A stretch of DNA of 64,000 nt. Origin: Ruegeria arenilitoris (GTDB lineage Bacteria; Pseudomonadota; Alphaproteobacteria; Rhodobacterales; Rhodobacteraceae). Shown here piece after piece: positions 10,239 to 64,000 of the stretch. The stretch lies in assembly GCF_013032855.1 (NCBI RefSeq), contig NZ_WQDA01000003.1, positions 1 to 64,000 of the forward strand. Reading direction: 5' to 3'. A program made the position numbers and the translations under genes. Each line of letters opens with the position of its first letter. Position 1 is the stretch's first letter. Below the pieces are notes generated by a model, which did not search any database, was not told the DNA's origin, and saw nothing but the letters and a program-made list of their open reading frames with translations.

Positions 10239-10245
10239 GGATGTT

Positions 10246-43105: not shown

Positions 43106-43106
43106 T

Positions 43107-43781: not shown

Positions 43782-43814
43782 TCCCTTCTTCGTGGCGCAG
43801 TCTATTGGGAGCTC

Positions 43815-44201: not shown

Positions 44202-44215
44202 TCGCGGCCTCCAAA

Positions 44216-44245
44216 AATATCGATATTATTTGACATATGGCAAAA
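44216..44245. promoter_or_regulatory. Palindromic site in divergent promoter region
   Basis: AATATCGATATT (44216-44227) is a perfect 12-base palindrome, followed by TTTG...CAAA dyad (about 44229-44244). It lies between the YciI-like gene and the FAH operon and is a candidate operator, perhaps for the GntR regulator encoded nearby. Confidence 0.4.
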
Positions 44246-44285
44246 TAGTCGGCAAAAATCAAGCAAGCTAACATGGAAGGTGACA

Positions 44286-45832: not shown

Positions 45833-45844
45833 GGAGGTGACCCA

Positions 45845-46306: not shown

Positions 46307-46340
46307 AAGTCAATAGACCCGACTTTCTGGGAGGAGAGAA

Positions 46341-47414: not shown

Positions 47415-47444
47415 CTGGCTGGCGATCCACGAAAGGGGCCTTTC

Positions 47445-47996
47445 ATGCTGAAGACCGCAGTTGCTGGCTTGTCGCGGGTCGCCAATTCGCTTGCAATCGC
47501 CGCCAACGCATTGGGTACGCTTGTCGTCCTGGCGTTGGTGGTCATTCTGAATGTTGACGTCATTGCGCGGGGCCTGTTTTCGGCCCCACTACGCGGAACC
47601 TACGAGATGGTGCAATTCTCGGTCGTGATGATCGTGTTCCTGCAGCTGGCCGATGTGGTCAGAGTGGATCGATTGACGCGCTCGGACGGGTTTTTGAACC
47701 TGCTACACCATCGTCGCCCCGGTCTGACAGCCAACCTGAGGCGCATCATCAACGCGATTTCCGCAATCTTCATGGCCCTGATCGCTTATGTAACCTTCCC
47801 AGAATTTTTTCATATGTGGGAGACACAGGACTACTTCGGAGTACCGGGTCTTTTCACATTGCCTTGGTGGCCGGTCAAACTGGTCATCGCGTGCGGTACT
47901 GCGCTTGCCTGCGTGATCTTCCTGCTCAAGGTCGTCACGGCGCAGGACCGCCCGCAACTTGTCCGCACCCCAGAGCATGACGAGGCTGCAGAATGA
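47445..47996 (+). CDS. TRAP transporter small permease (DctQ)
   Basis: A 183-aa protein with four hydrophobic helices (about 15-45, 55-75, 95-115, 140-165), including the VVILNVDVIARGLFSAPLRGTYEMVQFSVVM segment with the family's R-G-x2-E pattern. It partners the large DctM subunit, whose gene overlaps it by four bases. Confidence 0.9.
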   Translation: MLKTAVAGLSRVANSLAIAANALGTLVVLALVVILNVDVIARGLFSAPLRGTYEMVQFSVVMIVFLQLADVVRVDRLTRSDGFLNLLHHRRPGLTANLRRIINAISAIFMALIAYVTFPEFFHMWETQDYFGVPGLFTLPWWPVKLVIACGTALACVIFLLKVVTAQDRPQLVRTPEHDEAAE

Positions 47997-49297: not shown

Positions 49298-49307
49298 GGA
49301 GGCCAAG

Positions 49308-50174
49308 ATGCGCTCTGTCACCAAAGACAATATCACTGACGTCTTCATGGGGTACCTGTCCAAAGACTCCGATCCACGAATGCGCGAGATCATGGGCTCT
49401 CTGGTCAAACACCTGCACGATTTCGCACGGGAAACCAACCTGACGCATGACGAGTGGCGCGCTGGGATTGCGTTTCTGGAAGGCTGCGCCGCGGTGGAAA
49501 CCGAGGATAGGCATGAATTCGTGCTAGCCTCGGACGTGTTGGGCCTGTCGTCATTGGTTGACATGCTGCATTCCAGCCCTGACGCGACCAGTTCGTCTGT
49601 GTTGGGGCCGTTTCACGTCTCAGGCGCACCCCCGCTGCCGATCGGTGGCGATATGAAACGTCACTACGGCGGGCCGGTCCTTCTTGCTGAAGGCGTGGTC
49701 CGGGATACAAAGGGCAATCCGATTGCGGGTGCCGAGCTCGACATCTGGCAAACCGCACCAAACGGGCTCTACGCCAGTCAGGATGAGGAACAGGATATCT
49801 ACTCTTTTCATGGCTTGATGACGGTCGGCTCAGATGGCCGTTACGCTTTCACCACGGTCAAACCAGTGGAATACACGGTGCCATCTGATGGGCCAGTCGG
49901 AGACATTCTGCGAGCCTGTGGTCGCCATCCCTGGCGACCGTCGCACCTGCATTACATCGTCAAAGCTCCCGGTTATCGCACTTTGGTGACCGAGATATTT
50001 CCCGACGATGATCCCTATCTGGATGAAGACACGGTGTTTGGCGTGCGCGACGATCTGGTGATGACATATGTTGAACGCCCGGCTTCTGAATTTCCTGATG
50101 GCATGGAGCTTTCTGGTAAGATCCATGAACCTTTCTTGCATGTGAATTTCGACGTGACGCTTGCCAAGGACTGA
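49308..50174 (+). CDS. Hydroxyquinol 1,2-dioxygenase-type intradiol dioxygenase
   Basis: A 288-aa non-haem iron dioxygenase that cleaves a (hydroxy)catechol ring between its hydroxyls. The iron ligands are all present with family spacing: Tyr155, Tyr189, His213 and His215 (RPSHLHY). The N-terminal helical dimerisation domain and LGPFHVSGAP resemble hydroxyquinol enzymes more than catechol ones; the product would then be maleylacetate. No maleylacetate reductase gene is visible. It sits behind the TRAP genes in one run. Confidence 0.88.
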   Translation: MRSVTKDNITDVFMGYLSKDSDPRMREIMGSLVKHLHDFARETNLTHDEWRAGIAFLEGCAAVETEDRHEFVLASDVLGLSSLVDMLHSSPDATSSSVLGPFHVSGAPPLPIGGDMKRHYGGPVLLAEGVVRDTKGNPIAGAELDIWQTAPNGLYASQDEEQDIYSFHGLMTVGSDGRYAFTTVKPVEYTVPSDGPVGDILRACGRHPWRPSHLHYIVKAPGYRTLVTEIFPDDDPYLDEDTVFGVRDDLVMTYVERPASEFPDGMELSGKIHEPFLHVNFDVTLAKD

Positions 50175-50195
50175 TTGATAGATAGGAGGCTTGAG

Positions 50196-51002
50196 GTGCT
50201 GAAACGTATCTTCATTTTGGGCGCTGCGCTGTTTTGCAGTGCCGCCATCGCACAAGAGCGCCCCATCTTCGACACGCATATTCATTACAGCCACGACGCC
50301 GTCGAACTGGTGCCACCAGAACAGGTGGCTAAAATCCTTCGGGATGCGGGCGTGCGGAAAGCGCTAGTTTCCAGCTCAGACGACAATGGCACTCAGCTGT
50401 TGTTGGCCGCGGCACCGGACATCGTCGTTCCAGCGTTGCGCCCGTACCGTCGTCGCGGTGAAATCAATACCTGGATGCACGATGAAACTGTAATTGACTA
50501 TCTGGAGGAAAACCTGGCCAAAAACGACTACGAAGCTATCGGCGAGTTTCACGCTTACGGCAACGATATCAAAACGCCGGTAATCCAGCGTATGATTGCA
50601 CTGGCCAAAGAGCGGAACCTCATTTTACACCACCACGGTGATCGCGAGGCAGTTGACCTGATCTTCGAGACTTGGCCGGAGGCGCGGGTTTTGTGGGCGC
50701 ATTCTGGCTTTGACGACCCGGCCAGTGTGTCTGACGCCTTGGATACCTATCCCAGGCTTTGGGCGGACTTGGCTTTTCGGTCGGATATGGTTTCACGCGG
50801 CCGATTAGACCCGGATTGGAAGGCCGCGTTCGAGGCGCATCCCGAACGGTTCATGGTTGGGACGGACACATTTGCTCCGGAGCGTTGGTACTATGTTGGC
50901 CCGCACGCAGATTTTTCGCGTGAATGGCTGGATCTGCTGCCGGATCGGATCGCAGACAACATCGCCTATGCCAACGCTGAACGTTTGCTGGCATCAGAAT
51001 GA
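50196..51002 (+). CDS. Exported amidohydrolase-2-like TIM-barrel protein
   Basis: A 268-aa protein; the GTG at 50196 has AGGAGG six bases upstream and opens a signal peptide (LKRIFILGAALFCSAAIAQE). The metal motif FDTHIHYSH follows directly (mature N-terminus), then EFHAYGNDI, LILHHHGDREAV, LWAHSGFDD and VGTDTFAP, which give the His, His and Asp ligands of the amidohydrolase-2 group. Members hydrolyse or decarboxylate aromatic or lactone compounds; export is unusual for decarboxylases. Overlaps the next gene by four bases. Confidence 0.82.
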   Translation: MLKRIFILGAALFCSAAIAQERPIFDTHIHYSHDAVELVPPEQVAKILRDAGVRKALVSSSDDNGTQLLLAAAPDIVVPALRPYRRRGEINTWMHDETVIDYLEENLAKNDYEAIGEFHAYGNDIKTPVIQRMIALAKERNLILHHHGDREAVDLIFETWPEARVLWAHSGFDDPASVSDALDTYPRLWADLAFRSDMVSRGRLDPDWKAAFEAHPERFMVGTDTFAPERWYYVGPHADFSREWLDLLPDRIADNIAYANAERLLASE

Positions 51003-51376
51003 TCCGTTGGGTTGCCTGGCTTCTTGCTTCACCGGGCGCAGCAATTGCTTGTGACGCTGTGGGGCAACGCATGGGGTCGGAAGCCCCAGATGCGCCTGCG
51101 GTTTATTTGGGTGTCAGCGAAATTCCGTTGGCCCAACCGTTTTCCGTTCTGATTTCAGTCTGCAGTGAAGCAACGGCACATGAGGTGCGTGTTGATGCAA
51201 TCATGCCCGCTCATCAGCACGGTTTGAATTACGTTCCCGAAGTTTCGGCATTGGGCGATGGAATGTTCCGGGTCGATGATTTGCTGTTTCACATGCCGGG
51301 ACTCTGGGAGCTGCAGGCTGACGTTCATATCGGAGGGCGATCGCTGTCCTACACGTCAGAGATCACGCTCAAATGA
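50999..51376 (+). CDS. YtkA/FixH-like exported protein
   Basis: A 125-aa protein with a short leader (MIRWVAWLLASPGAAIA). The mature part is an immunoglobulin-like beta-domain: QPFSVLISVC, DAIMPAHQHGLNY, and LLFHMPGLWELQADVHIGG. The Met/His cluster MPAHQHGM-like and FHMPG resembles metal-binding YtkA/CopC-type domains. It overlaps both neighbours (amidohydrolase and di-heme peroxidase), so it may help to assemble or serve the peroxidase in the periplasm. Confidence 0.65.
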   Translation: MIRWVAWLLASPGAAIACDAVGQRMGSEAPDAPAVYLGVSEIPLAQPFSVLISVCSEATAHEVRVDAIMPAHQHGLNYVPEVSALGDGMFRVDDLLFHMPGLWELQADVHIGGRSLSYTSEITLK

Positions 51377-52503
51377 AGTTCTGGGCTTTAACCGCGCTAA
51401 TGGCGCTTCCGGTTGCTGTACACTCAGAAATTCTATTGTCCGAAGAGGAAATACAGCAAACGCTTTCCTTCGGGCCGTGGCCGCCAACATACAAGCCAGA
51501 CCCCAGCAATCGCGTTTCAGGTGACTCAAGGGCTATTTTGCTCGGCGCGGCTTTGTTCAACGATCCGGTGCTGTCGGTAGACGGCGCTTTTTCTTGTGCG
51601 AGTTGTCACGACCCCGAACAGGCATTTACAACATCCGAGGCGCGGGCGCTCGGCCGTGTCAGGTTGGATCGGAACACCCCATCCCTGAGAAACCTTGCGA
51701 GTCTGCGCTGGTACGGTTGGGGTGGCAAGAGCGATAGTCTCTGGGCAGCAAGTCTGCATCCGATCATCGAAGAACAAGAGATGGCTCACAGCAGCGAAAG
51801 TCTAAAGGCGGCAATTTCCGAGAGTTCTTATGTTGCTGATTTTGAGTCCATTTTCGGCAATATCCGAAGTCAAGACCCGGAGTTGGTCCTGGTCAACACG
51901 GCCAAGTCTCTATCAGCCTATTTGGAGACGCTTAGAACCGAGCGGACACAATTTGACAGTTTCCGCGATGCGCTGGAACGCGGAGATCTGTTGGCGGCTG
52001 CGAACTATCCCGAAGCTGCTCAGAGAGGTCTAAAGCTCTTTCTGGGGCGCGGGAAATGTGCCCTTTGCCACAATGGCCCGGCATTTTCCAACAATGAATT
52101 TCACGACGCCGGTGTGCCTTACTTCCTAAGCGAAACCGAAGTCGATGAAGGACGGTTCGGCGGGTTGAACTTCCTATTTTCAAGCGTCTACACACTGGAC
52201 GGGGAATGGAACGACGATCCCGCCAAGCAAGGTGCGTGGGCGGTTCGCAGTGTGCATAGGCGTCATTCTGATTTTGGGACCTTTCGTACGCCAAGTTTGC
52301 GGGGTGTGGCTGAAACTCCGCCCTATATGCACGACGGCAGTTTGATCGACTTGGACGCGGTGGTCCGGCACTACAGCGAGCTTGATACCGAAAGGCTGCA
52401 TGCCGACGGTGAGGCCATACTCTCAGAACTGAGCTTGTCCGAGCAGGAGATCGCTGATCTCATTATGTTTTTGGAGACTTTGTCCGGTGTTGCATGGCCT
52501 TGA
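51373..52503 (+). CDS. Di-heme cytochrome c peroxidase / MauG family
   Basis: A 376-aa periplasmic protein with signal peptide (MKFWALTALMALPVAVHSE) and two c-type haem sites, C75-A-S-C78-H79 and C229-A-L-C232-H233. The LGAALFNDPVLSVDGAF and LRNLASLRWYGWGGKSDSL segments and FRTPSLRGVAETPPYMHDGSL near the end are typical of the bacterial peroxidase/MauG group. It would reduce peroxides or oxidise an organic or protein substrate. Last gene of the run that starts at 44286; a hairpin follows. Confidence 0.9.
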   Translation: MKFWALTALMALPVAVHSEILLSEEEIQQTLSFGPWPPTYKPDPSNRVSGDSRAILLGAALFNDPVLSVDGAFSCASCHDPEQAFTTSEARALGRVRLDRNTPSLRNLASLRWYGWGGKSDSLWAASLHPIIEEQEMAHSSESLKAAISESSYVADFESIFGNIRSQDPELVLVNTAKSLSAYLETLRTERTQFDSFRDALERGDLLAAANYPEAAQRGLKLFLGRGKCALCHNGPAFSNNEFHDAGVPYFLSETEVDEGRFGGLNFLFSSVYTLDGEWNDDPAKQGAWAVRSVHRRHSDFGTFRTPSLRGVAETPPYMHDGSLIDLDAVVRHYSELDTERLHADGEAILSELSLSEQEIADLIMFLETLSGVAWP

Positions 52504-53306: not shown

Positions 53307-53948
53307 CTACTCAGACAACACTGCGCCATTCAGGTCAAAGTGCTTTGGGAACATTGCACGCAGAAATCGGAAGACAATTCTCATTGCTTCGTCGCGGTCA
53401 AATGAATCCGGGTGGAGTAGGTAATCAGTCCACATGCCTTCGAGCATTGCGAGTGTGCCGTGCGTGGCGTCCCTGGCAACTTGATTAGGGTGTTCCGTCC
53501 CAGTTTCTTTTGCAATTCGAGCGAAAGCGTTGAAAACCAAGTTCCGAAGCTTGGCGTCGCGGGTATCTGAAAACGCAGCGATTGCTGCTCTGTTTCGGGC
53601 CTCGCCTCGAAATGCGTACCAAATGGAGACGTTTTTCTTGTTGAGAATGGTTTCACTCAAGTCGCCCCGAACAATCATCTCAATATGTTCCTGTCCGGTT
53701 TGCCCGGTCGCTTCCAACAAGTCATAAATGCCGTTGTAGTATTGTTCGGATGAATAGCGGGCGGCTTCGTCGACCAAGTTGTCCTTACCACCAAAATGAA
53801 GATGAATCATGCCGCGGGACAGATTGGCGCGTTGGATGATTTCGCTGACTGAGGTCTCGGAAATCCCTTTCTCTGCCACCGAGTCGAGTACGGCCTCGAT
53901 CAGAGAAAGGCGATTTCGTTCGCGTATTTCTTGTCGTCTTCCGGTCAT
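53307..53948 (-). CDS. TetR-family regulator, BetI-like
   Basis: A 213-aa regulator with an N-terminal helix-turn-helix (RLSLIEAVLDSVAEKGISET, SEIIQRANLSRGMIHLHFGGKDNL) and a C-terminal domain like BetI, the choline-responsive repressor (WYAFRGEARNRAAIAAFSDTRD). It is divergent from the ABC-transporter genes with a perfect palindrome between them, so it very likely represses the 54140-62945 genes until a betaine- or amine-type compound binds (inference). Confidence 0.87.
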   Translation of the reverse strand: MTGRRQEIRERNRLSLIEAVLDSVAEKGISETSVSEIIQRANLSRGMIHLHFGGKDNLVDEAARYSSEQYYNGIYDLLEATGQTGQEHIEMIVRGDLSETILNKKNVSIWYAFRGEARNRAAIAAFSDTRDAKLRNLVFNAFARIAKETGTEHPNQVARDATHGTLAMLEGMWTDYLLHPDSFDRDEAMRIVFRFLRAMFPKHFDLNGAVLSE

Positions 53949-54039
53949 ATGATTAGGCGGCTCTATTTGTTTTCAGTCTCTTGCGGTGGCGTCTAGTGGC
54001 CGATGCGAAATTGGCCAGCCTCTATGTCGAAATAATCAG

Positions 54040-54090
54040 TTGACACAACTAGTGCAAAAATCCCAGATTTAAATGGACGATTGTCCATTT
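54040..54090 (+). promoter_or_regulatory. Promoter with perfect palindromic operator
   Basis: TTGACA at 54040-54045 is a good -35 box, with a weak -10 candidate (CAGATT) at 54064-54069. Directly downstream AAATGGAC (54071-54078) and GTCCATTT (54083-54090) form a perfect 8-bp inverted repeat with a four-base spacer, the size expected of a TetR-family site. Located between the BetI-like gene and the importer genes. Confidence 0.65.
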
Positions 54091-54139
54091 TGTGATCGAC
54101 TGTTGTCACAGCATCGAAAACGACATTCAGCAGGGAAGC

Positions 54140-55003
54140 ATGGCAGGAGCACTACGAAGTGAGACGGGCAAGGGCCTGGCACTTAGCGCGCCTGCGACGC
54201 TCTACGTGGGGCTGCTTGTAGCCGTGCCGCTCTGTATTCTTGTCGCCTACAGTTTTTGGACCCAGACATATGTTCAGATTGACCGGACATTGACTTGGGT
54301 GAACTACCAAGAGGCGTTTACTGACCCCTTGGTTCGACACCTAATGATCCGTTCGGTTGCAATTGCGGGTGCGGTGACCTTGGCAACGGTTTGTCTGGCC
54401 TATCCGATTGCCTACTTCATTGCTTTTCGTACGCAAAAAAAGACCCTCTGGCTGTTGTTGATCACTATTCCTTTTTGGAGCAGCTACCTTCTGCGCGTGT
54501 TCAGTTGGAAACTCATTCTTGGTTTCAACGGGGTGTTGAACTCGGCACTGATTTCATTGGGTTTGATACAAGAACCACTGACATTCCTGCTCTACAATGA
54601 GTTTGCTGTGGTCCTTACGCTCGCCCACGCCTGGGCACCGTTTGCCATCCTGCCGATCTATGTATCGCTGCAAAAGATTGACCGCAGCCTTTTGGAGGCT
54701 GCAACAGACCTTGGCTGCAGTAAGTTGGAGCGCTTTGTACGTGTGACACTGCCCCTGACGGTGCCGGGGATCATCGCGGCCTGCCTGATCATTTTCATCC
54801 CAACCGTCGGCGATTACGTCACTCCGGCCTTGGTCGGTGGATCTCAGGGAAAAATGGTCGCGAACTTGATCCAGGTGCAGTTTGGCGCCGCCAATAATTG
54901 GCCGTTGGGTGCAACTCTGTCTCTTCTCGCCATGCTTTCGGTCGGCTGCGTTGCGATCCTGTTCGTGGTGGTCGTCACCGCATTGGGTCGGAGGATCAGA
55001 TGA
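54140..55003 (+). CDS. ABC transporter permease, PotB type
   Basis: Inner-membrane permease of the spermidine/putrescine group, about 287 aa from the ATG at 54140 (AGGGAAG upstream; an earlier ATG at 54092 is possible but lies just behind the operator). Six hydrophobic helices, and the coupling motif DRSLLEAATDLGCSKLERFVRVTLPLTVPGI (EAA loop). Works with the next two products to import the ligand. Confidence 0.88.
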   Translation: MAGALRSETGKGLALSAPATLYVGLLVAVPLCILVAYSFWTQTYVQIDRTLTWVNYQEAFTDPLVRHLMIRSVAIAGAVTLATVCLAYPIAYFIAFRTQKKTLWLLLITIPFWSSYLLRVFSWKLILGFNGVLNSALISLGLIQEPLTFLLYNEFAVVLTLAHAWAPFAILPIYVSLQKIDRSLLEAATDLGCSKLERFVRVTLPLTVPGIIAACLIIFIPTVGDYVTPALVGGSQGKMVANLIQVQFGAANNWPLGATLSLLAMLSVGCVAILFVVVVTALGRRIR

Positions 55004-55794
55004 CCAGGGTATTTCGCATCTCATGGTTGCTGGTTTACGCGATTGCCTACCTGGTGTTTCTCTATCTGCCGGTTTTGCTGTTGCCGCTGTTTTCGTTCAA
55101 TGACGGAACCATCGTGGCGTTCCCGCTCAAAGGTTTCACGTTGAAATGGTACGCGCAGTTGGGTCAGCAAGACACGCTGTTGCAAGCCATGGTGAATTCG
55201 CTGATCGTCGGCAGCGTGACTGCCCTGATGGCAACTTCCCTGGGTCTCTTTGCAGCTCGCGCCTATGTCCGTTATCGCTTCACGGGGCGTGAGTTGTCCG
55301 AGGGATTGGTCATGCTTCCACTGGTCATTCCCGGCATCATCGTTGCCAGTTCAATGCTGGTTCTGTTCATCAGCATCGGGCTGAAACCATCGCTGACCAC
55401 CGTGATCCTTGGGCATGTGTTTGTGGCGCTGCCCTTTTCCGTGTCGATCATGAAGTCTGCGTTCGACGACTTCGACCAGTCCCTGGAGGAGGCCGCGTTC
55501 GATCTTGGTGAAAGCGTTGTTGGAACGTTTCGACGTGTTACCCTGCCAATCGTCGCGCCGGGAATCATTGCCAGCCTGTTGGTCACCTTCACAGTGTCGT
55601 TTGACGAGTTCGTCCTGGCCTTTTTCCTATCCGGAAACAGCCCAACACTGCCGGTGTATATCTGGAGCCAAATCCGCTTCCCGGCAAAGCTGCCCAACAC
55701 GTTGGCACTGGGGTCACTGCTATTACTGTCATCGGTCCTGCTGCTGTTGATTGCCGAATATTTCCGCCGCCGTTCCATCCAGTCCTCAGATTGA
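55000..55794 (+). CDS. ABC transporter permease, PotC type
   Basis: Second permease, 264 aa, starting at 55000 in an ATGA overlap with the first. FSFNDGTIVAFPLKGFTLKWY near the N-terminus is typical of PotC-like proteins; the EAA loop reads DQSLEEAAFDLGESVVGTFRRVTLPIVAPGI. Six hydrophobic helices. Confidence 0.9.
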   Translation: MTRVFRISWLLVYAIAYLVFLYLPVLLLPLFSFNDGTIVAFPLKGFTLKWYAQLGQQDTLLQAMVNSLIVGSVTALMATSLGLFAARAYVRYRFTGRELSEGLVMLPLVIPGIIVASSMLVLFISIGLKPSLTTVILGHVFVALPFSVSIMKSAFDDFDQSLEEAAFDLGESVVGTFRRVTLPIVAPGIIASLLVTFTVSFDEFVLAFFLSGNSPTLPVYIWSQIRFPAKLPNTLALGSLLLLSSVLLLLIAEYFRRRSIQSSD

Positions 55795-55814
55795 AGCCAA
55801 AGGAAACAAGTAAG

Positions 55815-56930
55815 ATGAGCGAACAGAACATCATCGAAATTCGGGGCGTAGAAAAACGCTTTGGTTCCTTTGTGGCTGTGTCTGATCTGAACCTGACCTT
55901 GAAAGAAGGTGAGTTCTTTTCGTTGCTTGGCCCTTCAGGCTGCGGCAAGACAACGGCATTGCGTATCATCGCGGGTTTTCAGGATCACGAAGAAGGCGAG
56001 ATCCGGATCGATGGTCGGACGATGGGAGAGGTGCCTGCCAACAAGCGCCCTACAAATATGGTGTTCCAAAGCTATGCGATCTTTCCGCACTTGAACGTCG
56101 GCGACAATGTTGGCTTCGGATTACGCAAAACAAAGCTGTCTCGGAGGGAAATCAAAGAGCGCGTTGCCGAGGCGCTTGCGATGGTCGAGCTTGGCGGCCT
56201 GCAGGACCGAAAAGCCAACGAATTGTCGGGAGGTCAGCGGCAACGTGTGGCACTCGCCCGGGCACTCGTTATGCGGCCCAAGGTATTGCTCTTGGATGAA
56301 CCGTTGTCTGCGTTGGACAAAAATCTGCGCGAAGCGATGCAGTTGGAGATGCGACGCCTTCAACAGAAGCTTGGAATTACTTTCGTCATGGTCACGCATG
56401 ACCAGTACGAGGCGATGACCATGTCCGACCGCATCGGCGTCATGTTCGCCGGGCAGCTCAAGCAGGTGGATAAGCCAGAGGTCCTGTATTCCCAACCTTG
56501 CAACCGGGAAGTGGCTTCTTTCATCGGTGGAATGAACTTTCTGGATGCCGAAGTGACTTCGGAGAATTCTGAAACGCTCGAAGTCAACGTCAAGGGCTTT
56601 GGGAAGATGGAAATCGGGGTGAACCCCAACGTCCAGGTGCATGACAACGAACTTCTTGTCGGGGTTCGACCTGAGCAACTGGAAATAAGCTCGGAAAAAC
56701 CGGATGGCTATGATGCTCTTGTTCAGGGCGAGGTCTCGGACGTCGCCTTTTATGGCGAGAGTGTCCACTACTATGTGCGCGTCGATGGTCTGAAAGACAG
56801 CATTGCCGTCGCAGTACCAAACTACTTTCACACGGTCGATCACACGCGCGGCGATACCGTCTGGCTTGGCGTTCAAAGCGCCTCGGTGATTGACTTGGGT
56901 AAACGTGAATCTTTGGGAGGAGAACAATGA
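55815..56930 (+). CDS. ABC transporter ATPase, PotA type
   Basis: ATPase of 371 aa. Walker A GPSGCGKTT, Q-loop FQSYAIFPHL, signature LSGGQRQRVALARAL, Walker B LLLDEPLSALD, then the C-terminal OB-like (TOBE) regulatory domain (about 280-365). The ATG at 55815 gives the usual N-terminus; a TTG at 55791 is possible. Ends in an ATGA overlap with the binding-protein gene. Confidence 0.92.
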   Translation: MSEQNIIEIRGVEKRFGSFVAVSDLNLTLKEGEFFSLLGPSGCGKTTALRIIAGFQDHEEGEIRIDGRTMGEVPANKRPTNMVFQSYAIFPHLNVGDNVGFGLRKTKLSRREIKERVAEALAMVELGGLQDRKANELSGGQRQRVALARALVMRPKVLLLDEPLSALDKNLREAMQLEMRRLQQKLGITFVMVTHDQYEAMTMSDRIGVMFAGQLKQVDKPEVLYSQPCNREVASFIGGMNFLDAEVTSENSETLEVNVKGFGKMEIGVNPNVQVHDNELLVGVRPEQLEISSEKPDGYDALVQGEVSDVAFYGESVHYYVRVDGLKDSIAVAVPNYFHTVDHTRGDTVWLGVQSASVIDLGKRESLGGEQ

Positions 56931-57982
56931 TTAAAACAGCATCACTTACGGCAGCAGTAGTTGCCACCTTTACCGCGGGCCAAGCTCTGGCGAACGCCGC
57001 TGACCTGACCGTTTTTGACTGGTCCGGATATGAGGATCAGGGTTTCTACGGCGATTATGTCGAAAAGTACGGTGGGGCGCCCAGCTACACCTATTTTGGC
57101 AGCGTGGAAGAAGCGTTCACCAAGCTTCAGTCCGGGTTTGAGGCCGATTTGGCTCACCCCTGCACAGATGCTCTGAGGAAATGGGTGGCGGCAGATTTGA
57201 TCAAGCCAATCGACACCAGCAAGCTGGAGAATTGGGACAAGTTGATGCCCAAGATCAAAGAGGTCGATGGCATCACGATCGATGGGCAGACCTACATGGT
57301 GCCGTTTGAGTGGGGCAACACCGGCCTGATCTATCGCACCGATATGATTTCGGCGGATGATGTTTCGCTGCAATTGCTTGCAGATCCCGCCTATCAGGGC
57401 AAAGTCGCCATTCCGGACGCCGCTTCCAGTGCCTTTGCAATGGCAGCCTTGGCGACTGGAGCGTCCAGCTATACCGATATGAGTGACGAGGAATTCCAAA
57501 AAGCGGCGGACTATCTGCGCGCGGTTCATCCGAACGTGCGGTTTTATTGGTCCGATGCCGGCCAACTGGATCAGGCAATTGCCAGCGGTGAGGTCACGCT
57601 GGGTTGGGGATGGAACCAATCGGAACTGAACCTGATCTGGAACGAAACCCCAGCAGTCATGATGCGTGATGTGGACAAAGGCATCGCGACCTGGGTCTGC
57701 GGTTATGTACATCTGAAATCTGCGAAGCAGTCGGATGAGCAGGTCTATGACATGCTGAACGCGCTCAGCTCCGCGGCAAGTGGGAAGTACATCATTGAAA
57801 GCTGGGGGTACGCCCACGCCAATGAAGACGCTTTTGCACAGGCAGACCCGGAGTTGATCGAGACTTACGGGTTCTCGGATGTGGACAGCTTCTTTGAAGG
57901 CAGCTTGTTCTTTGACGCCGTTAACCCCGAGTTGGAGGCGAAGATGTTGAAGGAATTCGAGCGCATCAAAGCGGGCTTCTAA
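56927..57982 (+). CDS. ABC transporter binding protein, PotD type
   Basis: Periplasmic binding protein of 351 aa with a signal peptide (LTAAVVATFTAGQALANAAD). The mature part follows PotD/PotF-like proteins (LTVFDWSGYEDQGFYGDYVEKYG, FEADLAHPCTDALRKWVAADLIKPID, VPFEWGNTGLIYRTDMI). Aromatic residues in the pocket region (FEWGN; YWSDAGQLDQAI; WGWNQSE) could cage a cationic group, consistent with a quaternary amine or polyamine. The cognate substrate is not provable from sequence. Confidence 0.88.
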   Translation: MIKTASLTAAVVATFTAGQALANAADLTVFDWSGYEDQGFYGDYVEKYGGAPSYTYFGSVEEAFTKLQSGFEADLAHPCTDALRKWVAADLIKPIDTSKLENWDKLMPKIKEVDGITIDGQTYMVPFEWGNTGLIYRTDMISADDVSLQLLADPAYQGKVAIPDAASSAFAMAALATGASSYTDMSDEEFQKAADYLRAVHPNVRFYWSDAGQLDQAIASGEVTLGWGWNQSELNLIWNETPAVMMRDVDKGIATWVCGYVHLKSAKQSDEQVYDMLNALSSAASGKYIIESWGYAHANEDAFAQADPELIETYGFSDVDSFFEGSLFFDAVNPELEAKMLKEFERIKAGF

Positions 57983-58003
57983 AGGCGCTCTTACAACACA
58001 GCC

Positions 58004-58038
58004 GGGAATGGTGGGGATGTAGAAACCCTTCCATTCCC
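58004..58038 (+). terminator. Intercistronic stem-loop between importer and enzyme genes
   Basis: Perfect arms GGGAATGG (58004-58011) and CCATTCCC (58031-58038), with a possible inner GGG/CCC pairing. No U-run follows. It may stabilise the transporter message or attenuate transcription into the enzyme genes. Confidence 0.6.
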
Positions 58039-58076
58039 ACGAAACCATTTCCGATTTTCTTGGAGGAAGCGCGGCA

Positions 58077-60143
58077 ATGTCAGGCGCTGACGGATATTCT
58101 GTACTCTTTGAACCGGTTCAAATTGGGCCAGTGACGGCTCGAAACCGGTTCTACCAAGTGCCCCACTGCAACGGCATGGGGCACTTGCGACCGCAGGCCG
58201 AGGCTGCCATGCGGGCAATGAAGGCCGAGGGTGGTTGGGCCGTCGTCTCCAACCAGGAGACGGAAATTCACCCGACTTCTGACCTGTCCCCGTTTGCCGA
58301 AAACCGACTTTGGGATGAGCGGGATATTCCGGCGCTGCGCCTGATGACCGAGGCGGTGCATGGAAAGGGGTCTTTGGCGGCTATTGAATTGGCGCATAAC
58401 GGTCACCACGCGCAAAATCATCTGAGCCGGGCCCCTTTGCTGGCGCCTTCAGAACTTGCCTTGCAAACTGCTTATCCCAAGCAAGCCAGGGCGATGGATA
58501 AGGCGGACATTCGCGAATTTCGCAAGTGGCATCGCGCAGCGGCTCGCCGTTCGCGCGAAGCCGGGTTCGACATCGTGTATGTATATGCCGGGCATCACAT
58601 GACCTTGCCTCATCATTTCCTGCTGCCACAGTTCAATGATCGAACGGATGAGTATGGAGGTTCACTGGAGAACCGGGTGCGGCTAACCCGCGAGCTTCTT
58701 GAAGAAACCAAGGAAGAGGTTGGAGACGATTGCGCCATTGCCCTGCGATTTGCGGTTGACGAAATGCTCGGGGCAGACGGCATGCAAGCGCAGGAAGAAG
58801 GCCGTGCTGTAGTCGAGTTGCTGGCCGAGCTTCCTGACCTTTGGGATGTTAACGTGGCAGATTGGAGCAACGACTCTGCAACTACCCGGTTCGAGCCCCG
58901 CGACGGCTTTCAAACCTCATATATCGAATTCGTGAAACAGGTGACTTCCAAACCTGTTGTTGGCGTCGGGCGTCTTACGTCGCCGGATTTGATGGCGTCA
59001 CTGGTCAGGAAAGGCATTCTTGATTTTATCGGCGCGGCGAGGCCATCCATCGCTGATCCGTTTCTGCCCAACAAAATCAAGGAAGGTCGCATCGAAGAAA
59101 TCCGTGAGTGCATCGGTTGCAATATCTGTGTTTCATCCGACTCTCTCGGTGTCCCCATACGCTGCACACAAAACCCGACCATGGGCGAAGAGTGGCGGCG
59201 GAAATGGCATCCAGAGTTCATTGAGCGTCGGGGGAAAGAGAAAACTGCGCTCGTTGTGGGCAGCGGACCAGCCGGACTTGAATGCGCCATGCAATTGGCG
59301 CGGCGGGGATACGAGGTAACTCTGGCGGAAGCCAAGCAAGAGCTTGGCGGCCGTGTCTTGCAGGAGTCTGGTCTGACCGGGCTGTCCGCTTGGAAACGCG
59401 TCACAGATCACAGGATTTATGACCTTAGGCAAAGAGGGAACGTTCAACTGTTCACCGACAGCCTGTTGTCAGCAACCGAGGTTGTCGAGCTGGCTATTCC
59501 GAACGTCTTTGTCGCAACTGGCGCAAAATGGCGACGAGACGGGCGCGGGAAATCTGGATTTCACGGCGTATCAATAAGCGCCGGCGCTCAGGTATTTACG
59601 CCGGATGACATCATGTCAGGGACACTGCCGGGGAGCGGTCCGGTTTTGGTCTACGATGATGAACAGGCATATCTCGGTGGTGTATTGGCGGATCATCTGG
59701 CTCGGGCTGGACATGAGGTCGTCTTTGTAACCCCGGCTTCAATGGTTTCGCCGTTTACTGAACTAACGCTGGAACAAACTCGAGTACAACGCAGTCTTCT
59801 GGAGGGCGGCGTTCAACTGGTCCTGTCTCATACATTGGACAACGTGGCGCCGGGGCAGGCGACCGTGCGATGTGCGTACACGGGGCAAGAACAGACCAAA
59901 GAATGTGGTTCAGTTGTGTTGGTGACGCAGCGCGCGCGCGAAACCAACCTCTACGATGAGCTGCGCAGCTTGGCCAACAACCCGCTGACTACGTTGGAAT
60001 TGATCGGAGATGCAGCAAACCCCGGCTTGATCGCGGACGCAGTATATTCGGGTCACATGGCTGCTCGGAATTTTGAACGCGAGGCGGGCGAAATTGACCG
60101 CGAATTTTTCCGTCGGGAACTCGTTTCCCTTGAACTTCTTTGA
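58077..60143 (+). CDS. Trimethylamine-dehydrogenase-like flavin oxidoreductase
   Basis: A 688-aa FMN/4Fe-4S/ADP enzyme like trimethylamine or dimethylamine dehydrogenase and dimethylglycine-catabolism DgcA. Order: TIM barrel (about 1-370), iron-sulfur segment, FAD/NAD-type domains (from about 390, VVGSGPAGLECAMQLARRGYEV). Cys31 in YQVPHC matches the cysteinyl-FMN site; Cys345, 348, 351 and 363 bind 4Fe-4S. Of the aromatic bowl residues of trimethylamine dehydrogenase, the Trp of DWSND (263) is kept, but the Trp355 position is Asp355 and the Tyr60 segment differs. It probably demethylates a larger or charged N-methyl compound. Confidence 0.87.
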   Translation: MSGADGYSVLFEPVQIGPVTARNRFYQVPHCNGMGHLRPQAEAAMRAMKAEGGWAVVSNQETEIHPTSDLSPFAENRLWDERDIPALRLMTEAVHGKGSLAAIELAHNGHHAQNHLSRAPLLAPSELALQTAYPKQARAMDKADIREFRKWHRAAARRSREAGFDIVYVYAGHHMTLPHHFLLPQFNDRTDEYGGSLENRVRLTRELLEETKEEVGDDCAIALRFAVDEMLGADGMQAQEEGRAVVELLAELPDLWDVNVADWSNDSATTRFEPRDGFQTSYIEFVKQVTSKPVVGVGRLTSPDLMASLVRKGILDFIGAARPSIADPFLPNKIKEGRIEEIRECIGCNICVSSDSLGVPIRCTQNPTMGEEWRRKWHPEFIERRGKEKTALVVGSGPAGLECAMQLARRGYEVTLAEAKQELGGRVLQESGLTGLSAWKRVTDHRIYDLRQRGNVQLFTDSLLSATEVVELAIPNVFVATGAKWRRDGRGKSGFHGVSISAGAQVFTPDDIMSGTLPGSGPVLVYDDEQAYLGGVLADHLARAGHEVVFVTPASMVSPFTELTLEQTRVQRSLLEGGVQLVLSHTLDNVAPGQATVRCAYTGQEQTKECGSVVLVTQRARETNLYDELRSLANNPLTTLELIGDAANPGLIADAVYSGHMAARNFEREAGEIDREFFRRELVSLELL

Positions 60144-60151
60144 GGTGCACC

Positions 60152-61351
60152 ATGCCACAAGATGATTTGCAAGTAATGCGCGACTTGGTGGGCTCGCAAC
60201 GTGAAGGGTTCGCCTTGCCTCGTCACTTCTACACGTCACAAGCCGTATACGAGAACGATATCAGTGCGTTCTGGAACCGAAACTGGATCTGGGTCGGCCA
60301 TGTTAGCCAGGTCCCTGAACCGGGTGATTATTTCCTGTTCGACTATGGACCCGAGTCCATCATTATCGTTCGGGATCGGGAAGGCGAAGTGCGCGGGCAT
60401 CTGAACGTATGCCGCCATCGTGGATCGCGGGTTTGCATCGAACGGAAAGGCAAAGCCCGCAACTTCATATGTCCGTATCACGCGTGGACTTTCGACTTGA
60501 ACGGCAAACTGCGGAACGGTCGATCAATGGGATCGGGTTTTGATCCGGGCCAGTATGGGTTGTTCCCGGTTCAGGTGAAGATATACCAAGGTCTGATATT
60601 CGCCTGTGCAGCCGCGAATGCACCACCTCTGGATGCCGCGTTGGAGCGACTCGCCCCACTTTCAAAGCCGTTTGACTTTGAAAATCTGAAGGTCGCTCAT
60701 GAAGCCTCGTATCCGGTTCCCGCGAACTGGAAACTGGCCTTGGAAAACTATCTGGAGTGCTATCACTGCGCCCCGTCTCATCAGGACTATTCGCGCAGTC
60801 ACTCGTTGAAAGATCCTGCTCAAGTTCTTGAGTTCAGCGGCGCTCTTCGCGAGCGGATGGACGAAGTCGGAGTTCCCTTGGAGGAGTTGGACCTGACCGG
60901 AGAAAACGCGTTCGCGCCGGGTGCAGATGTCTATTGGCGGCGCTACCCGCTGTTTCCCGGGTATTTGACGGGCAGCAAGGATGGTACGCCTTTGGCTCCC
61001 GCTCTGGGAGAGCTAAAGGGTCACGACGGCGGTGCCACCGATCTGGGGATCGGGACTTTGAACTACTTCCTCGTTTATGCAGATCACATGGTTGGCTACC
61101 GGTTCGTTCCGCGCGCCCTGCAGGAAACAGATATTCAGATCGTCTGGTATGTGCGCGGCGATGCTCAAGAGGGTCGTGACTACGACAAGGACGCGTTGAC
61201 ATGGCTCTGGCATGTCACGTCGCTCGATGATGAGCGGATCATCCGTCACAATCAGGAAGGCGTGAACTCCCACCATTTCGTGCCGGGACCGCTGTCCGAG
61301 ATGGAGTGGAGCATTCCTGGTTTCTATCGCAACTACTTCAGCATGATCTGA
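60152..61351 (+). CDS. Rieske-type N-demethylating monooxygenase (GbcA/stachydrine-demethylase-like)
   Basis: A 399-aa oxygenase component. The ATG at 60152 follows GAGGTG. Rieske centre: Cys87-x-His89 and Cys107-x2-His110. Mononuclear iron: Glu202 region ENYLECYHCAPSH with His205 and His210, and the Asp in TSLDDERIIRHNQEG. The sequence pattern (SQREGFALPRHFYTS, then WIWVGHVSQVPEPGDYF) is that of glycine-betaine / proline-betaine / carnitine-type oxygenases. It would remove a methyl as formaldehyde from a quaternary ammonium substrate. No reductase partner gene is visible in the window. Confidence 0.88.
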   Translation: MPQDDLQVMRDLVGSQREGFALPRHFYTSQAVYENDISAFWNRNWIWVGHVSQVPEPGDYFLFDYGPESIIIVRDREGEVRGHLNVCRHRGSRVCIERKGKARNFICPYHAWTFDLNGKLRNGRSMGSGFDPGQYGLFPVQVKIYQGLIFACAAANAPPLDAALERLAPLSKPFDFENLKVAHEASYPVPANWKLALENYLECYHCAPSHQDYSRSHSLKDPAQVLEFSGALRERMDEVGVPLEELDLTGENAFAPGADVYWRRYPLFPGYLTGSKDGTPLAPALGELKGHDGGATDLGIGTLNYFLVYADHMVGYRFVPRALQETDIQIVWYVRGDAQEGRDYDKDALTWLWHVTSLDDERIIRHNQEGVNSHHFVPGPLSEMEWSIPGFYRNYFSMI

Positions 61352-61376
61352 TACGCTCAGAATTCGGAGAAACACC

Positions 61377-62945
61377 ATGACAGAGTTAACGAAGCGCCGA
61401 TCAAGACGGCGCGGGGGCGGGCGTGAGGCGCGCGCGGCCGTGCGAACCAGCAACGTCGCTTCGCAGGCAATCTGGCCGGGCATTGCCGGAGGAAGATACA
61501 AGCCCCTTTCAGACGCTGACATGGCGCGCATTCATGAAGCCGCCCTGAGTATTCTGGAGCGTACCGGCGTCGGTGATCCAACACAGGAAGTTCTTGATCT
61601 CGTGCTGCCCAAAGGGGCGACGGTGAACGAGCACGGCAGGCTGTGTTTTCCTCGGGCCTTGATGGAAGACCTGTTGGCCAAGGCCGCCAGCGAATTCTAT
61701 GTCCATGCACGCGGATCTCGGGCCGGAAAGGACGACATGCACTGCACCAAGGACAAGGTGTATTACGCAAATTCCGGTACGGCGGTGACAACGTTTGACG
61801 CGGAAACGCGCAGTTACCGACCATCGACGCTCAAGGATATCTACGATTTCACCCGCCTTGTAGACCGGCTCGACAACATTCACATGACCGGTGATACGGT
61901 TCTGGCAACGGATGTCCCGCAGGACTACGAGCATGACATGAGCATGCTATACGCCATTCTGGCGGGAAGCGAGAAACCGTCCTGCCTGACATTCCGCACG
62001 CGCGAACACATACAAGACGCCATTCATATGTTCGATCTGGCATCGGGCGGGGAGGGAAAGTTCCTTGAAAAGCCCTCGGTGATTTTTGGAGGCTGTCCCA
62101 TCGTTTCACCGCTTCGGTTCGGGCGGGAAAACCTGGAAATCCTGATTGATACTGCGAAAATGGGCCTTGTCTGCGACCTTGCCGTTCCGCCACAAGCCGG
62201 AGCCACGTCACCTGCGCCATTGGCCGGCACGCTGGCGCAGGCGGTGGCCGAGACCCTTTCCTGCGTGGCCGTTGCCAACCTGATTAACCCAGGAACACCT
62301 GTCGTCTTTGCGGCATGGCCGTTCATTACTGATCTGCGCACTGGATCCTTTACTGGCGGAAGTGGCGAGCAGGCTTTGATTTCAGCCGCTGCTATTCAGA
62401 TGGGCAACTTCTACAACCTACCAACCAGCGTCGGATGTGGAATGACGGATTCCAAAATCCCCGATGCGCAATATGGGCTGGAAAAAGCGCTTACCTTCGC
62501 ACTAGCGGCCCATGCGGGAGCAAACCGGTTGTGCGAGTTTGGCGGGATGCTCGGCAGCCTGATGGGCTGTAGCTTTGAGTCAATGGTCATCGACAACGAG
62601 GCGGCGGGTATGATCTCTCGAACACTGCGCGGGATCGAGGTGAGTGACGATACGCTTTCAGTCGACGTCATCCACGAATGCGCAATCGATCCCGGACATT
62701 TCCTTGGCAACGCTCAGACCTTGCAGTACATGGAAACCGAGTATGTCTATCCAACCTTGATGGATCGGGAACTTACCGACACTTGGGAGAAGGCAGGCCG
62801 TCAGGATATGTTCGAGCGGAGTAGGTCGGTTGTGAACGATATCCTTTCCAATCACTACCCGAACTACTTTGGCAGCAAGGCTGATGAAGAGGTTCGATCC
62901 AGGTTTCCGATTAAGTTGCCGCCTGAAGTAATGCGGGCTGGGTGA
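61377..62945 (+). CDS. MttB-superfamily methyltransferase without pyrrolysine
   Basis: A 522-aa TIM-barrel protein of the trimethylamine methyltransferase MttB superfamily, read without any in-frame amber codon. Such non-pyrrolysine members (for example the glycine-betaine enzyme MtgB) move a methyl from a quaternary amine to a corrinoid protein. Family segments: SDADMARIHEAALSILERTGVGDP, VYYANSGTAVTTFD and CEFGGMLGSLMGCSFESMV. No corrinoid protein gene is in the window. It follows the Rieske gene by 25 bases, with GGAGA at its start, and probably shares its transcript. N-terminal 25 residues are very basic. Confidence 0.85.
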   Translation: MTELTKRRSRRRGGGREARAAVRTSNVASQAIWPGIAGGRYKPLSDADMARIHEAALSILERTGVGDPTQEVLDLVLPKGATVNEHGRLCFPRALMEDLLAKAASEFYVHARGSRAGKDDMHCTKDKVYYANSGTAVTTFDAETRSYRPSTLKDIYDFTRLVDRLDNIHMTGDTVLATDVPQDYEHDMSMLYAILAGSEKPSCLTFRTREHIQDAIHMFDLASGGEGKFLEKPSVIFGGCPIVSPLRFGRENLEILIDTAKMGLVCDLAVPPQAGATSPAPLAGTLAQAVAETLSCVAVANLINPGTPVVFAAWPFITDLRTGSFTGGSGEQALISAAAIQMGNFYNLPTSVGCGMTDSKIPDAQYGLEKALTFALAAHAGANRLCEFGGMLGSLMGCSFESMVIDNEAAGMISRTLRGIEVSDDTLSVDVIHECAIDPGHFLGNAQTLQYMETEYVYPTLMDRELTDTWEKAGRQDMFERSRSVVNDILSNHYPNYFGSKADEEVRSRFPIKLPPEVMRAG

Positions 62946-63008
62946 GCGTAGCAGGTCGCGGTAGGGGCTCGCCACTTGCTAGGTTGCGAGGCCGCCCCGA
63001 AGCCATTC

Positions 63009-64000
63009 CTAAGTTCTCAACGCATTCTGGCGCGTCAGGTCCTCGGTGGCCAGCCGGATGCCCTTTTCAAGGATGTCGAACATCTGGTTCAACTCGTCTT
63101 CTGAAATGATCAACGGCGGAGAAAACACACACATATTGATGATTGGCCGCAGGATCAGTCCGTTCTCCTGACAATGATGATCAATCAATGCGCCAACTGA
63201 TTTATCAAGATCCAGCAGGTCATCGGCTTTGGCGTCCGCAACACACTCGACGCAGCCAACCAGCCCCATACCGCGGGCATCACCGACAAGCGGCAATTCA
63301 GCTAGGACCTGAAGGCGTTCTGCGAACAGCGGCGTGATCGCGCGGACATGCTCAAGAACGCCGTCACGCTCCATGATTTCGATAGTCTTCAAACCGGCCG
63401 CCGCGCTTACTGGGTGGCCCGAATAGGTGAAGCCATTAGAAAAGGTAGCGTCTTGGGCGTGTTCGCCGCTTATTTCTGCAATCAGCCGATCAGAAATGAT
63501 GCAGGCCCCCATCGGCACATACCCGGAAGTCATCCCCTTCGCGCAGGTGATGATATCCGGCTGAATCCCAAAGACGTCTTCGGAGGCAAACCAATGCCCA
63601 AGCCGTCCGAACCCAGTCACAACCTCGTCCGAGATATATAGGACATCGTACTTTCGGCAGATTTCAAGACAGCGCAAATGATATCCCGGTGGAGGTACGA
63701 TGACACCTCCAGAGCACAAGATCGGTTCAGCGATGAAAGCTGCGACCTTGTTTGCTCCGGTCTGCAGGATCATGTTTTCCAGATCCGCTATTTTTTCGTC
63801 CAGAAAGTCGTCGACTGTCTGCTCGGGGCGACGCGTACAAGGATTCACATTTGGCAGGAAGCGCGTCAGGTGACTTGCCTGGTCCAGCCAACCTTTGTCT
63901 CGCTCTTTTCCGGACACTGAGGCCGCCAGGTAGGTCGATCCGTGATAGGCTTTCTGCCGCGATATCACGATCTTCTTTTCAGGCTTGCCCAGAAGGTTGT
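63009..64000 (-). CDS. Class III aminotransferase (5' end beyond window)
   Basis: PLP-dependent omega-aminotransferase, C-terminal 330 residues visible; the frame stays open to the window end (LLGKPEKKIVISRQKAYHGST). Family marks: RQKAYHGSTYLAAS, AAFIAEPILCSGGVIVPPPGY, YISDEVVTGFGRLGHWFAS and the Schiff-base lysine in DIITCAKGMTSGYVPMGA. It is convergent with the methyltransferase gene, 63 bases apart. Related enzymes act on taurine, beta-alanine, putrescine or similar amines, so it may treat the amine left after demethylation. Confidence 0.9.
   Translation of the reverse strand, partial: NLLGKPEKKIVISRQKAYHGSTYLAASVSGKERDKGWLDQASHLTRFLPNVNPCTRRPEQTVDDFLDEKIADLENMILQTGANKVAAFIAEPILCSGGVIVPPPGYHLRCLEICRKYDVLYISDEVVTGFGRLGHWFASEDVFGIQPDIITCAKGMTSGYVPMGACIISDRLIAEISGEHAQDATFSNGFTYSGHPVSAAAGLKTIEIMERDGVLEHVRAITPLFAERLQVLAELPLVGDARGMGLVGCVECVADAKADDLLDLDKSVGALIDHHCQENGLILRPIINMCVFSPPLIISEDELNQMFDILEKGIRLATEDLTRQNALRT

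What the first reader, a model, noticed from the sequence alone, without database searches (positions are those of the whole stretch)
53307..64000. Candidate new quaternary-amine degradation system
One locus joins a BetI-like sensor, a PotABCD-type importer, a trimethylamine-dehydrogenase-like flavoprotein, a Rieske N-demethylase, an MttB homologue and a class III aminotransferase. Rieske and flavin enzymes could strip successive methyl groups and the aminotransferase remove the final amine. I know of no described pathway with this combination; the substrate might be a betaine of an amino acid or another N-methylated marine osmolyte.
Basis: partly seen in the sequence, partly recalled or inferred. 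Interest (0 to 1): 0.7.

Follow-up and report, generated by a model that had tools for sequence, protein, structure and literature searches.

The report
Quaternary-amine operon with interchangeable demethylases
A marine bacterial operon appears to import a small methylated ammonium compound and break it down; related bacteria carry either an oxygen-dependent or a vitamin-B12-type enzyme for what looks like the same first step, but the compound itself is still unknown.

Summary
The locus is real: TetR, PotBCAD, flavoprotein, Rieske oxygenase (RO), MttB, and a class III aminotransferase (AT) that continues past the window edge (478 aa). The flavoprotein is nearer to histamine dehydrogenase (752 bits) than to trimethylamine dehydrogenase (525); two of the three aromatic residues of the trimethylamine bowl are Glu61 and Asp355 here, in 60 of 60 orthologues. 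Main result: of 295 family genomes, 13 carry the flavoprotein orthologue (64% or more); they have RO only in 5, MttB only in 4, both in 3, neither in 1. MttB-only loci fall in three places on the flavoprotein tree. RO and MttB thus look like alternative N-demethylases in an otherwise constant operon. A palindrome, probably the TetR operator, lies between regulator and operon in 50 of 52 loci examined. The substrate is unknown. PotD's polyamine-binding carboxylates are replaced while its aromatic residues stay, the dehydrogenase pocket is acidic, and agmatine genes flank some relatives; I favour a quaternary cation with a second positive charge over a simple amino-acid betaine. New variant of a known kind.

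The parts
53307..53948 (-). TetR-family regulator (BetI-type C-terminal domain), divergent from the operon
   Evidence: orthologue within 9 kb of the flavoprotein in 52 of 60 loci
54073..54088 (.). probable TetR operator: palindrome ATGGAC-GATT-GTCCAT
   Evidence: motif at up to 2 mismatches in 50 of 52 regulator-operon intergenic regions, background 0.32 per kb; the only other perfect match to ATGGACN4GTCCAT in this genome lies inside the RO gene
54092..55003 (+). PotB-type ABC permease (start may be the ATG at 54140)
54991..55794 (+). PotC-type ABC permease
55815..56930 (+). PotA-type ABC ATPase (the listed ORF opens at a TTG, 55791)
   Evidence: TIGR01187 potA subfamily cut-off met (369.5 of 355.6)
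56927..57982 (+). PotD-type substrate-binding protein; positions of the polyamine-binding carboxylates replaced, aromatic positions kept
58077..60143 (+). histamine-dehydrogenase-like flavoprotein (Cys31, Tyr170, His173, Asp266 kept; Glu61, Glu75, Asp355 in the pocket)
60152..61351 (+). Rieske oxygenase with Group V features (Glu206, Cys207-x-x-Cys210); ATG at 60152
61377..62945 (+). non-pyrrolysine MttB-superfamily methyltransferase
63009..64000 (-). class III aminotransferase, 3' part; the gene continues beyond the window to contig position 64445
   Evidence: orthologues on the operon's strand downstream in 17 of 60 loci, on the opposite strand in 13 of 60, the window included

Best explanation
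The operon encodes uptake and stepwise breakdown of a small quaternary (or N-methylated) ammonium compound. A TetR repressor bound at the conserved palindrome is released by the compound or a breakdown product (inferred). A PotABCD-type importer takes it up; its binding protein probably holds the methylated nitrogen in an aromatic cage (inferred from residues). The first methyl group is removed either by the Rieske oxygenase (O2, giving formaldehyde) or by the MttB homologue (passing the methyl to a corrinoid protein and on to folate); relatives keep one, the other or both, so the two are probably alternatives for the same step (the interchange is shown by comparative genomics, the reactions are inferred). 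The histamine-dehydrogenase-like flavoprotein then oxidatively demethylates or deaminates the resulting amine, and the class III aminotransferase removes a terminal amino group in those species that have it. The substrate probably carries a second positive charge, as in a methylated diamine or a guanidino-amine, feeding into the agmatine/putrescine/GABA route.
For: Constant core: TetR 52, PotB 49, PotD 49 and RO 54 of 60 loci with a flavoprotein orthologue of 60% or more. RO/MttB swap: the 13 genomes with the flavoprotein orthologue among 295 have RO only 5, MttB only 4, both 3, neither 1; the MttB-only genomes have no RO match at E<=1e-40 and the RO-only genomes no MttB above 42% identity. 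In the operon the AT directly follows RO without MttB (L065, L068, L069) or MttB without RO (L120, L121, L124). MttB-only rows lie in three places on the tree, at least 12 changes of state. RO: Group V Glu and Cys-x-x-Cys in 56 of 56. Binding protein: the positions of E. coli PotD Glu36, Glu171, Asp257 (named in PMC4096761) are Gly in 49, Ser in 48 and Cys in 49 of 49, while five aromatic positions are unchanged in 49 of 49. Flavoprotein: Glu61, Glu75, Trp263, Asp355 in 60 of 60. Agmatine genes beside the operon in 11 of 60 loci: agmatinase-family in 9 (Leisingera and kin), AguA and AguB in L120, AguB in L069.
Against: No substrate, enzyme activity or induction has been shown. 35 of the 60 loci carry both RO and MttB, so they may do successive or conditional work rather than the same step; 53 of the 60 loci were found through the RO and so over-represent it. 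No AT of 50% or more was found within 9 kb in 28 of 60 loci (in one of these, L070, it is cut by the contig end), so it is not an obligate part. The 11 loci with agmatine genes lie in only two clades of the tree and could be neighbours by chance; the flavoproteins of the more distant Yoonia and Parasedimentitalea clusters have different pocket residues. The binding protein keeps other conserved acids (Asp81 in 48, Asp164 in 49, Glu128 in 47 and Asp in 2 of 49), so a polyamine ligand is not excluded, and the residue mapping rests on an alignment at about 25% identity. One genome (G267) has the flavoprotein without an RO or MttB orthologue. No RO reductase of the GbcB kind is encoded nearby.
Confidence: 0.55

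Rival explanations
1. Degradation of an omega-amino-acid betaine such as gamma-butyrobetaine or beta-alanine betaine: RO or MttB and the flavoprotein remove the methyls, and the AT turns GABA or beta-alanine into the semialdehyde.
For: Class III AT in 32 of 60 loci; MttB-superfamily enzymes demethylate betaines (MtyB, gamma-butyrobetaine; PMC8604678, title and start of abstract in a search listing); nearest MttB structures 2qne and 9yce, the latter named glycine betaine methyltransferase; a choline/betaine-type ABC binding protein near 4 of 60 loci, L058, L060, L080, L081.
Against: The dehydrogenase pocket holds conserved Glu61, Glu75 and Asp355, unfavourable for a carboxylate-bearing product (inference); the importer is of the PotD type; the flavoprotein is only 27% identical to the one beside a betaine-type RO and its reductase in Roseivivax.
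Confidence: 0.2
2. A polyamine, agmatine or histamine-type amine pathway without a quaternary nitrogen: the RO and MttB act on tertiary or secondary N-methyl groups, or the RO hydroxylates beside nitrogen.
For: Flavoprotein nearest to histamine dehydrogenases, which also oxidise agmatine and diamines; a gammaproteobacterial relative of the RO (L106) sits with glutamine-synthetase-like, DAO, GATase, AT and agmatinase genes, and several of these recur in other gammaproteobacterial loci; agmatinase-family or AguA/AguB genes beside 11 of 60 loci.
Against: The three carboxylates named for polyamine binding in PotD are replaced in 48-49 of 49 orthologues; the Group V features of the RO and the MttB family both point to quaternary nitrogen.
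Confidence: 0.15
3. A second route for an already known osmolyte (glycine betaine, carnitine, choline, proline betaine or trimethylamine).
For: Related enzyme families; RO (GbcAB) and corrinoid methyltransferase (MtgBCD) are known alternatives for glycine betaine (PMC12478193).
Against: RO about 35% identical to two betaine-type ROs that sit with their reductase; GbcA cut-off far from met (283 of 670); two of three TMADH bowl residues lost.
Confidence: 0.05

Closest known systems
GbcAB / Stc2-type glycine betaine and stachydrine Rieske demethylases
   Same: Group V Rieske oxygenase for N-demethylation; in Roseivivax also next to an OYE-superfamily flavoprotein
   Different: RO about 35% identical to two such ROs; no GbcB-type reductase found in any flavoprotein-RO locus, against 5 of 5 control loci with ROs of 34-36% identity; flavoprotein 27% identical
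MtgBCD glycine betaine demethylation of marine Rhodobacteraceae (PMC12478193)
   Same: MttB-superfamily protein without pyrrolysine in a genome with one stand-alone B12-binding_2 protein
   Different: this MttB scores 354 bits to PF06253 against 647-783 for four paralogues, and it sits in a PotABCD/flavoprotein/RO operon
Histamine dehydrogenase (Nocardioides simplex 3k30, Rhizobium 6de6)
   Same: covalent-FMN cysteine, catalytic Tyr/His/Asp, and Phe77, Glu79, Trp267, Asp358 equivalents
   Different: Gln65 to Glu, Ile74 to Leu, Asn115 to His, Tyr181 to Met; encoded with demethylases and an importer
PotABCD / PotFGHI polyamine importers
   Same: fold and gene set; nearest structures YdcS and PotD
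   Different: Glu36, Glu171 and Asp257 of PotD correspond to Gly, Ser, Cys

Membership tests
GbcAB-type glycine betaine monooxygenase | NCBIfam equivalog NF058607 score over cut-off | tested here: not met
   283 of 670 bits
GbcAB-type glycine betaine monooxygenase | adjacent reductase gene | tested here: not met
   tblastn with five GbcB-type reductases: no hit in any flavoprotein-RO locus; present in the five control loci they came from. Other kinds of reductase were not sought.
Group V Rieske oxygenases | bridging Glu and Cys-x-x-Cys beside the iron-binding His | tested here: met
   56 of 56 orthologues, feature from PMC10952381 (passages)
Trimethylamine dehydrogenase | aromatic bowl Tyr60, Trp264, Trp355 (recalled) | tested here: not met
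   Glu61 and Asp355 replace two of the three, 60 of 60 orthologues
Histamine dehydrogenase | proposed histamine-site residues Gln65, Ile74, Phe77, Glu79, Asn115, Tyr181, Trp267, Asp358 | tested here: inconclusive
   4 of 8 identical in the window protein: Phe73, Glu75, Trp263, Asp355
Histamine dehydrogenase | oxidation of histamine | not testable with these tools
   no assay possible
Pyrrolysine MttB (trimethylamine methyltransferase) | TIGR02369 cut-off and in-frame amber codon | tested here: not met
   377 of 525 bits, no stop inside
Polyamine-binding protein PotD | carboxylates Glu36, Glu171, Asp257 | tested here: not met
   Gly 49, Ser 48, Cys 49 of 49; residues named in PMC4096761 (passages)
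BetI choline repressor | TIGR03384 and NF001978 cut-offs | tested here: not met
   92.1 of 201.3 and 97.3 of 118 bits

The most novel reading that the evidence does not exclude
The operon degrades a dicationic quaternary compound not known to me as a bacterial substrate, such as an N-methylated agmatine or putrescine: RO or MttB and the histamine-dehydrogenase-like enzyme strip the N-methyl groups, and agmatinase or AguAB and the aminotransferase carry agmatine and putrescine on to GABA. In addition, because no GbcB-type reductase is encoded nearby, the flavoprotein itself might hand its electrons to the Rieske enzyme.
Probability: 0.15. Interest if true: 0.75.

Novelty: new variant of a known kind. 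Interest (0 to 1): 0.5.

Why it matters
Marine bacteria with mtgC and mtgD often carry several (up to seven) MttB-family genes, taken as a sign that further methylated compounds are used this way (PMC12478193, passages); this genome has seven and one B12-binding_2 protein. The locus gives one of these orphans a pathway, a probable operator for reporter assays, and a natural experiment in which an O2-dependent and a corrinoid-type demethylase replace each other in the same operon. Finding the substrate would add a compound to the marine dissolved organic nitrogen budget.

Tried and rejected
TMADH reading of the flavoprotein: rejected on scores and pocket residues. Filing under GbcAB/stachydrine: rejected. 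Operator search to find more pathway genes (nine of the 13 genomes, ATGGACN4GTCCAT with up to one mismatch): the operon site is perfect in six (G000, G193, G241, G272, G239, G043), has one mismatch in G200 and is not found at the operon of G278 and G109; two other perfect sites exist (inside the RO gene of G000, and G193 C23:241258). In all there are 51 matches against 33 for the reversed control; the excess is clearest in G200, G239, G272 and G278 and was not followed up, so further targets are not excluded. Sinorhizobium and Shinella flavoprotein homologues (54-55%) lie in other surroundings. Of eight plasmid loci with more distant ROs that I opened (of 46 records under 60% identity), the five at 34-36% have an annotated reductase next to the RO and the three at 38-46% (H31, H32, H39) do not. 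The structure search of the binding protein gave the PotD/PotF/YdcS fold, with opine, GABA and other binders lower down; it does not name a ligand. Papers on Ruegeria pomeroyi transporters and SAR11 polyamine use (PMC10130141, PMC9870897, PMC8437039; passages) did not name this operon in the passages shown. Of ten literature searches, eight bear on the pathway and two on residues; the listings showed no described pathway with this gene set, but the library holds open-licence papers only and long result lists were cut. The name 'GbcA-type' for the five control loci is mine, from identity and context; their records say only aromatic ring-hydroxylating dioxygenase.
Full report
What is there. The window is the first 64 kb of a 707-kb contig (C3) of a Ruegeria-like Rhodobacteraceae genome; the nearest named Rieske orthologues are from Ruegeria (R. 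arenilitoris, R. conchae, R. atlantica, R. lacuscaerulensis) at 89-93% identity. The ORFs and family scans give, from left to right: a TetR gene on the minus strand (53307-53948), then PotB, PotC, PotA, PotD, a two-domain flavoprotein (58077-60143), a Rieske oxygenase (RO; ATG at 60152, eight bases after the flavoprotein stop), an MttB-superfamily protein, and on the minus strand a class III aminotransferase (AT) that runs past the window to contig position 64445. Genome-wide searches found no Fer2 and no B12-binding_2 match in that flank.

The flavoprotein is not a trimethylamine dehydrogenase. Against the PDB it scores 752 bits to Nocardioides histamine dehydrogenase (3k30), 688 to the Rhizobium enzyme (6de6), 638 to an unnamed relative (6l6j) and 525 to TMADH. 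In the alignments the FMN cysteine and the catalytic Tyr/His/Asp are kept, but two of the three aromatic residues of the TMADH bowl (recalled) are replaced: Tyr60 by Glu61 and Trp355 by Asp355. Of the eight histamine-site residues proposed for 3k30 (PMC10180351, passages) four are identical in the window protein. Glu61, Glu75, Trp263 and Asp355 are unchanged in 60 of 60 orthologues, while Phe73 is Phe in 16, Tyr in 43 and Gly in 1. Histamine dehydrogenases also oxidise agmatine and diamines, so a substrate with a second positive charge is plausible; this is an inference.

The Rieske enzyme carries the Group V features described for CntA and Stc2 (PMC10952381, passages): the bridging Glu and the Cys-x-x-Cys are present in 56 of 56 orthologues of 55% or more. 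Its best PDB matches are 3vca, 4qup and 3n0q (224-229 bits; the first recalled as Stc2) and CntA (137 bits). The GbcA equivalog cut-off is not met (283 of 670). With five GbcB-type reductases as queries no hit was found in any flavoprotein-RO locus; the hits were the five control loci themselves, two own-genome regions beside RO paralogues (L130, L131, 28-29%) and the edge of L124, which has no RO. The five controls are plasmid loci with ROs of 34-36% identity, each with the reductase next to the RO; three further plasmid loci with ROs of 38-46% have none annotated. The electron donor of this RO must lie elsewhere, or be unusual.

Comparative genomics. I compared the window with 12 neighbourhoods from the RO family search, 80 from named genomes found with the RO and 10 found through the flavoprotein. 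After removing two duplicates (L022, L028), 60 loci have a flavoprotein orthologue of 60% or more; 53 of these were found through the RO, six through the flavoprotein, and one is the window. Within 9 kb: TetR 52, PotB 49, PotD 49, RO 54, MttB 38, AT 32 of 60. The tree also counts RO and MttB for L122, whose RO is split over two contigs, giving both 35, RO only 20, MttB only 4, neither 1. The less biased sample is the 295-genome family search. There, 81 genomes have a flavoprotein match at E<=1e-150; 13 of them hold one at 64% identity or more, the next best being 57%. Of these 13, three have both RO and MttB orthologues (G000, G193, G245), five RO only (G278, G272, G239, G109, G004), four MttB only (G241, G200, G201, G043) and one neither (G267, which has only distant homologues, 37% and 40%). 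MttB-only genomes have no RO match at E<=1e-40; RO-only genomes have no MttB above 42% identity. MttB orthologues (72% or more) occur in 7 of 295 genomes, all with the flavoprotein (Fisher 4.8e-11). RO orthologues (58% or more) occur in nine, eight of them with it (8.8e-12); the five ROs of 45-47% were left out of this count. Shared descent makes these values too small, and in the family-wide searches only up to three (flavoprotein), six (RO) or five (MttB) candidates a genome were scored.

The order of genes shows the swap directly: TetR-PotBCAD-flavoprotein-RO-AT in two Roseovarius and one Sulfitobacter locus (L065, L068, L069) and TetR-PotBCAD-flavoprotein-MttB-AT in L120, L121 and L124 (L124 is from the window's own genus). 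On the flavoprotein tree (quick method, SH-aLRT only) the four MttB-only rows fall in three places among RO-bearing rows, with at least 12 changes of state over the tree. RO-only rows are basal, which suggests that MttB joined later and sometimes displaced the RO; this is an inference. Two RO loci (L026, L085) have no flavoprotein orthologue beside them.

Regulation. A perfect palindrome, AAATGGAC-GATT-GTCCATTT, lies between the TetR gene and PotB (core 54073-54088). The motif TGGAC-N4-GTCCA, up to two mismatches, is in the regulator-operon intergenic region of 50 of 52 loci examined, missing in L067 and L069, against 0.32 per kb in the loci as a whole. It is there with RO, with MttB and with both. 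In nine genomes searched whole the operon site is perfect in six, has one mismatch in one and was not found at the operon in two; there were 51 matches in all against 33 for the reversed control, so it is mainly local, though further sites are not excluded.

Metabolic setting. Agmatine-processing genes recur beside the operon: an agmatinase-family gene in 9 of 60 loci (Leisingera and kin; the copy on a Leisingera plasmid is over the agmatinase cut-offs), agmatine-deiminase-like plus carbamoylputrescine amidase genes in L120 (the second over its cut-off, the first not), and the amidase in L069. These 11 loci lie in two clades of the tree. A distant RO relative (38%) in Yoonia sits with an annotated agmatinase and a flavoprotein 48% identical to ours, though with different pocket residues. 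The gammaproteobacterial RO relative in L106 sits with glutamine-synthetase-like, DAO, GATase, class III AT and agmatinase genes, several of which recur in related loci. The five control loci have no agmatine gene; of ten own-genome regions around MttB, RO and other paralogues one has agmatinase-like genes (L039, itself an MttB locus). The genome has seven MttB genes and one B12-binding_2 protein; in Ruegeria pomeroyi one MtgC serves glycine betaine demethylation and methionine synthesis (PMC12478193; abstract, first part of Results and passages read).

Reading. Shown: a conserved, probably co-regulated operon in which an O2-dependent-type and a corrinoid-type demethylase replace one another. 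Inferred: both remove a methyl group from the same quaternary nitrogen; the flavoprotein acts next; the AT finishes where present. Open: the substrate, the RO electron donor, and why most of the sampled loci keep both demethylases. GbcAB and MtgBCD are already known as alternatives for glycine betaine in different bacteria, so I call this a new variant of a known kind.

Noticed in passing
L039 (G000:C1:700500-720400), 3271-10690: Another MttB paralogue of this genome (40% identical to the window's) sits beside two adjacent agmatinase-like genes (the one scored is below the agmatinase cut-offs) and a choline/glycine-betaine-type ABC importer; a possible second methylated-guanidine or quaternary-amine pathway.
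   Followed up: partly
L106 1237-14867 and many of L090-L118: Gammaproteobacterial relatives of the Rieske enzyme (SAR92, Halieaceae, OM182, Porticoccaceae) lie in a recurring cluster with two FAD amine-oxidase-like proteins, a GcvT-like protein, a glutamine-synthetase-like protein, class III AT and, in six loci, agmatinase.
   Followed up: partly
L126 6348-15258, L127 1456-13950, L128 6935-18903: Tandem histamine-dehydrogenase-like paralogues (two or three in a row, 50-57% to the window's) with their own PotABCD-type importer and TetR gene.
   Followed up: no
window 40287-52503: To the left: AMP-binding ligase and malonyl-CoA-decarboxylase-like genes with a GntR regulator, then FAH-like, nitroreductase-like, TRAP transporter, intradiol-dioxygenase-like and cytochrome-c-peroxidase-like genes (named by eye from the ORFs, not by a family search).
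   Followed up: no
L008 12255-13638 (contig C3 about 75.3-76.6 kb): An amidohydrolase-like gene appears in two overlapping reading frames, as after a frameshift (by eye).
   Followed up: no
L138 4925-13523: A Parasedimentitalea plasmid cluster pairs two different Rieske oxygenases (26% and 46% to the window's) around PotBCA-type genes, with a flavoprotein 49% identical to the window's but with other pocket residues.
   Followed up: partly
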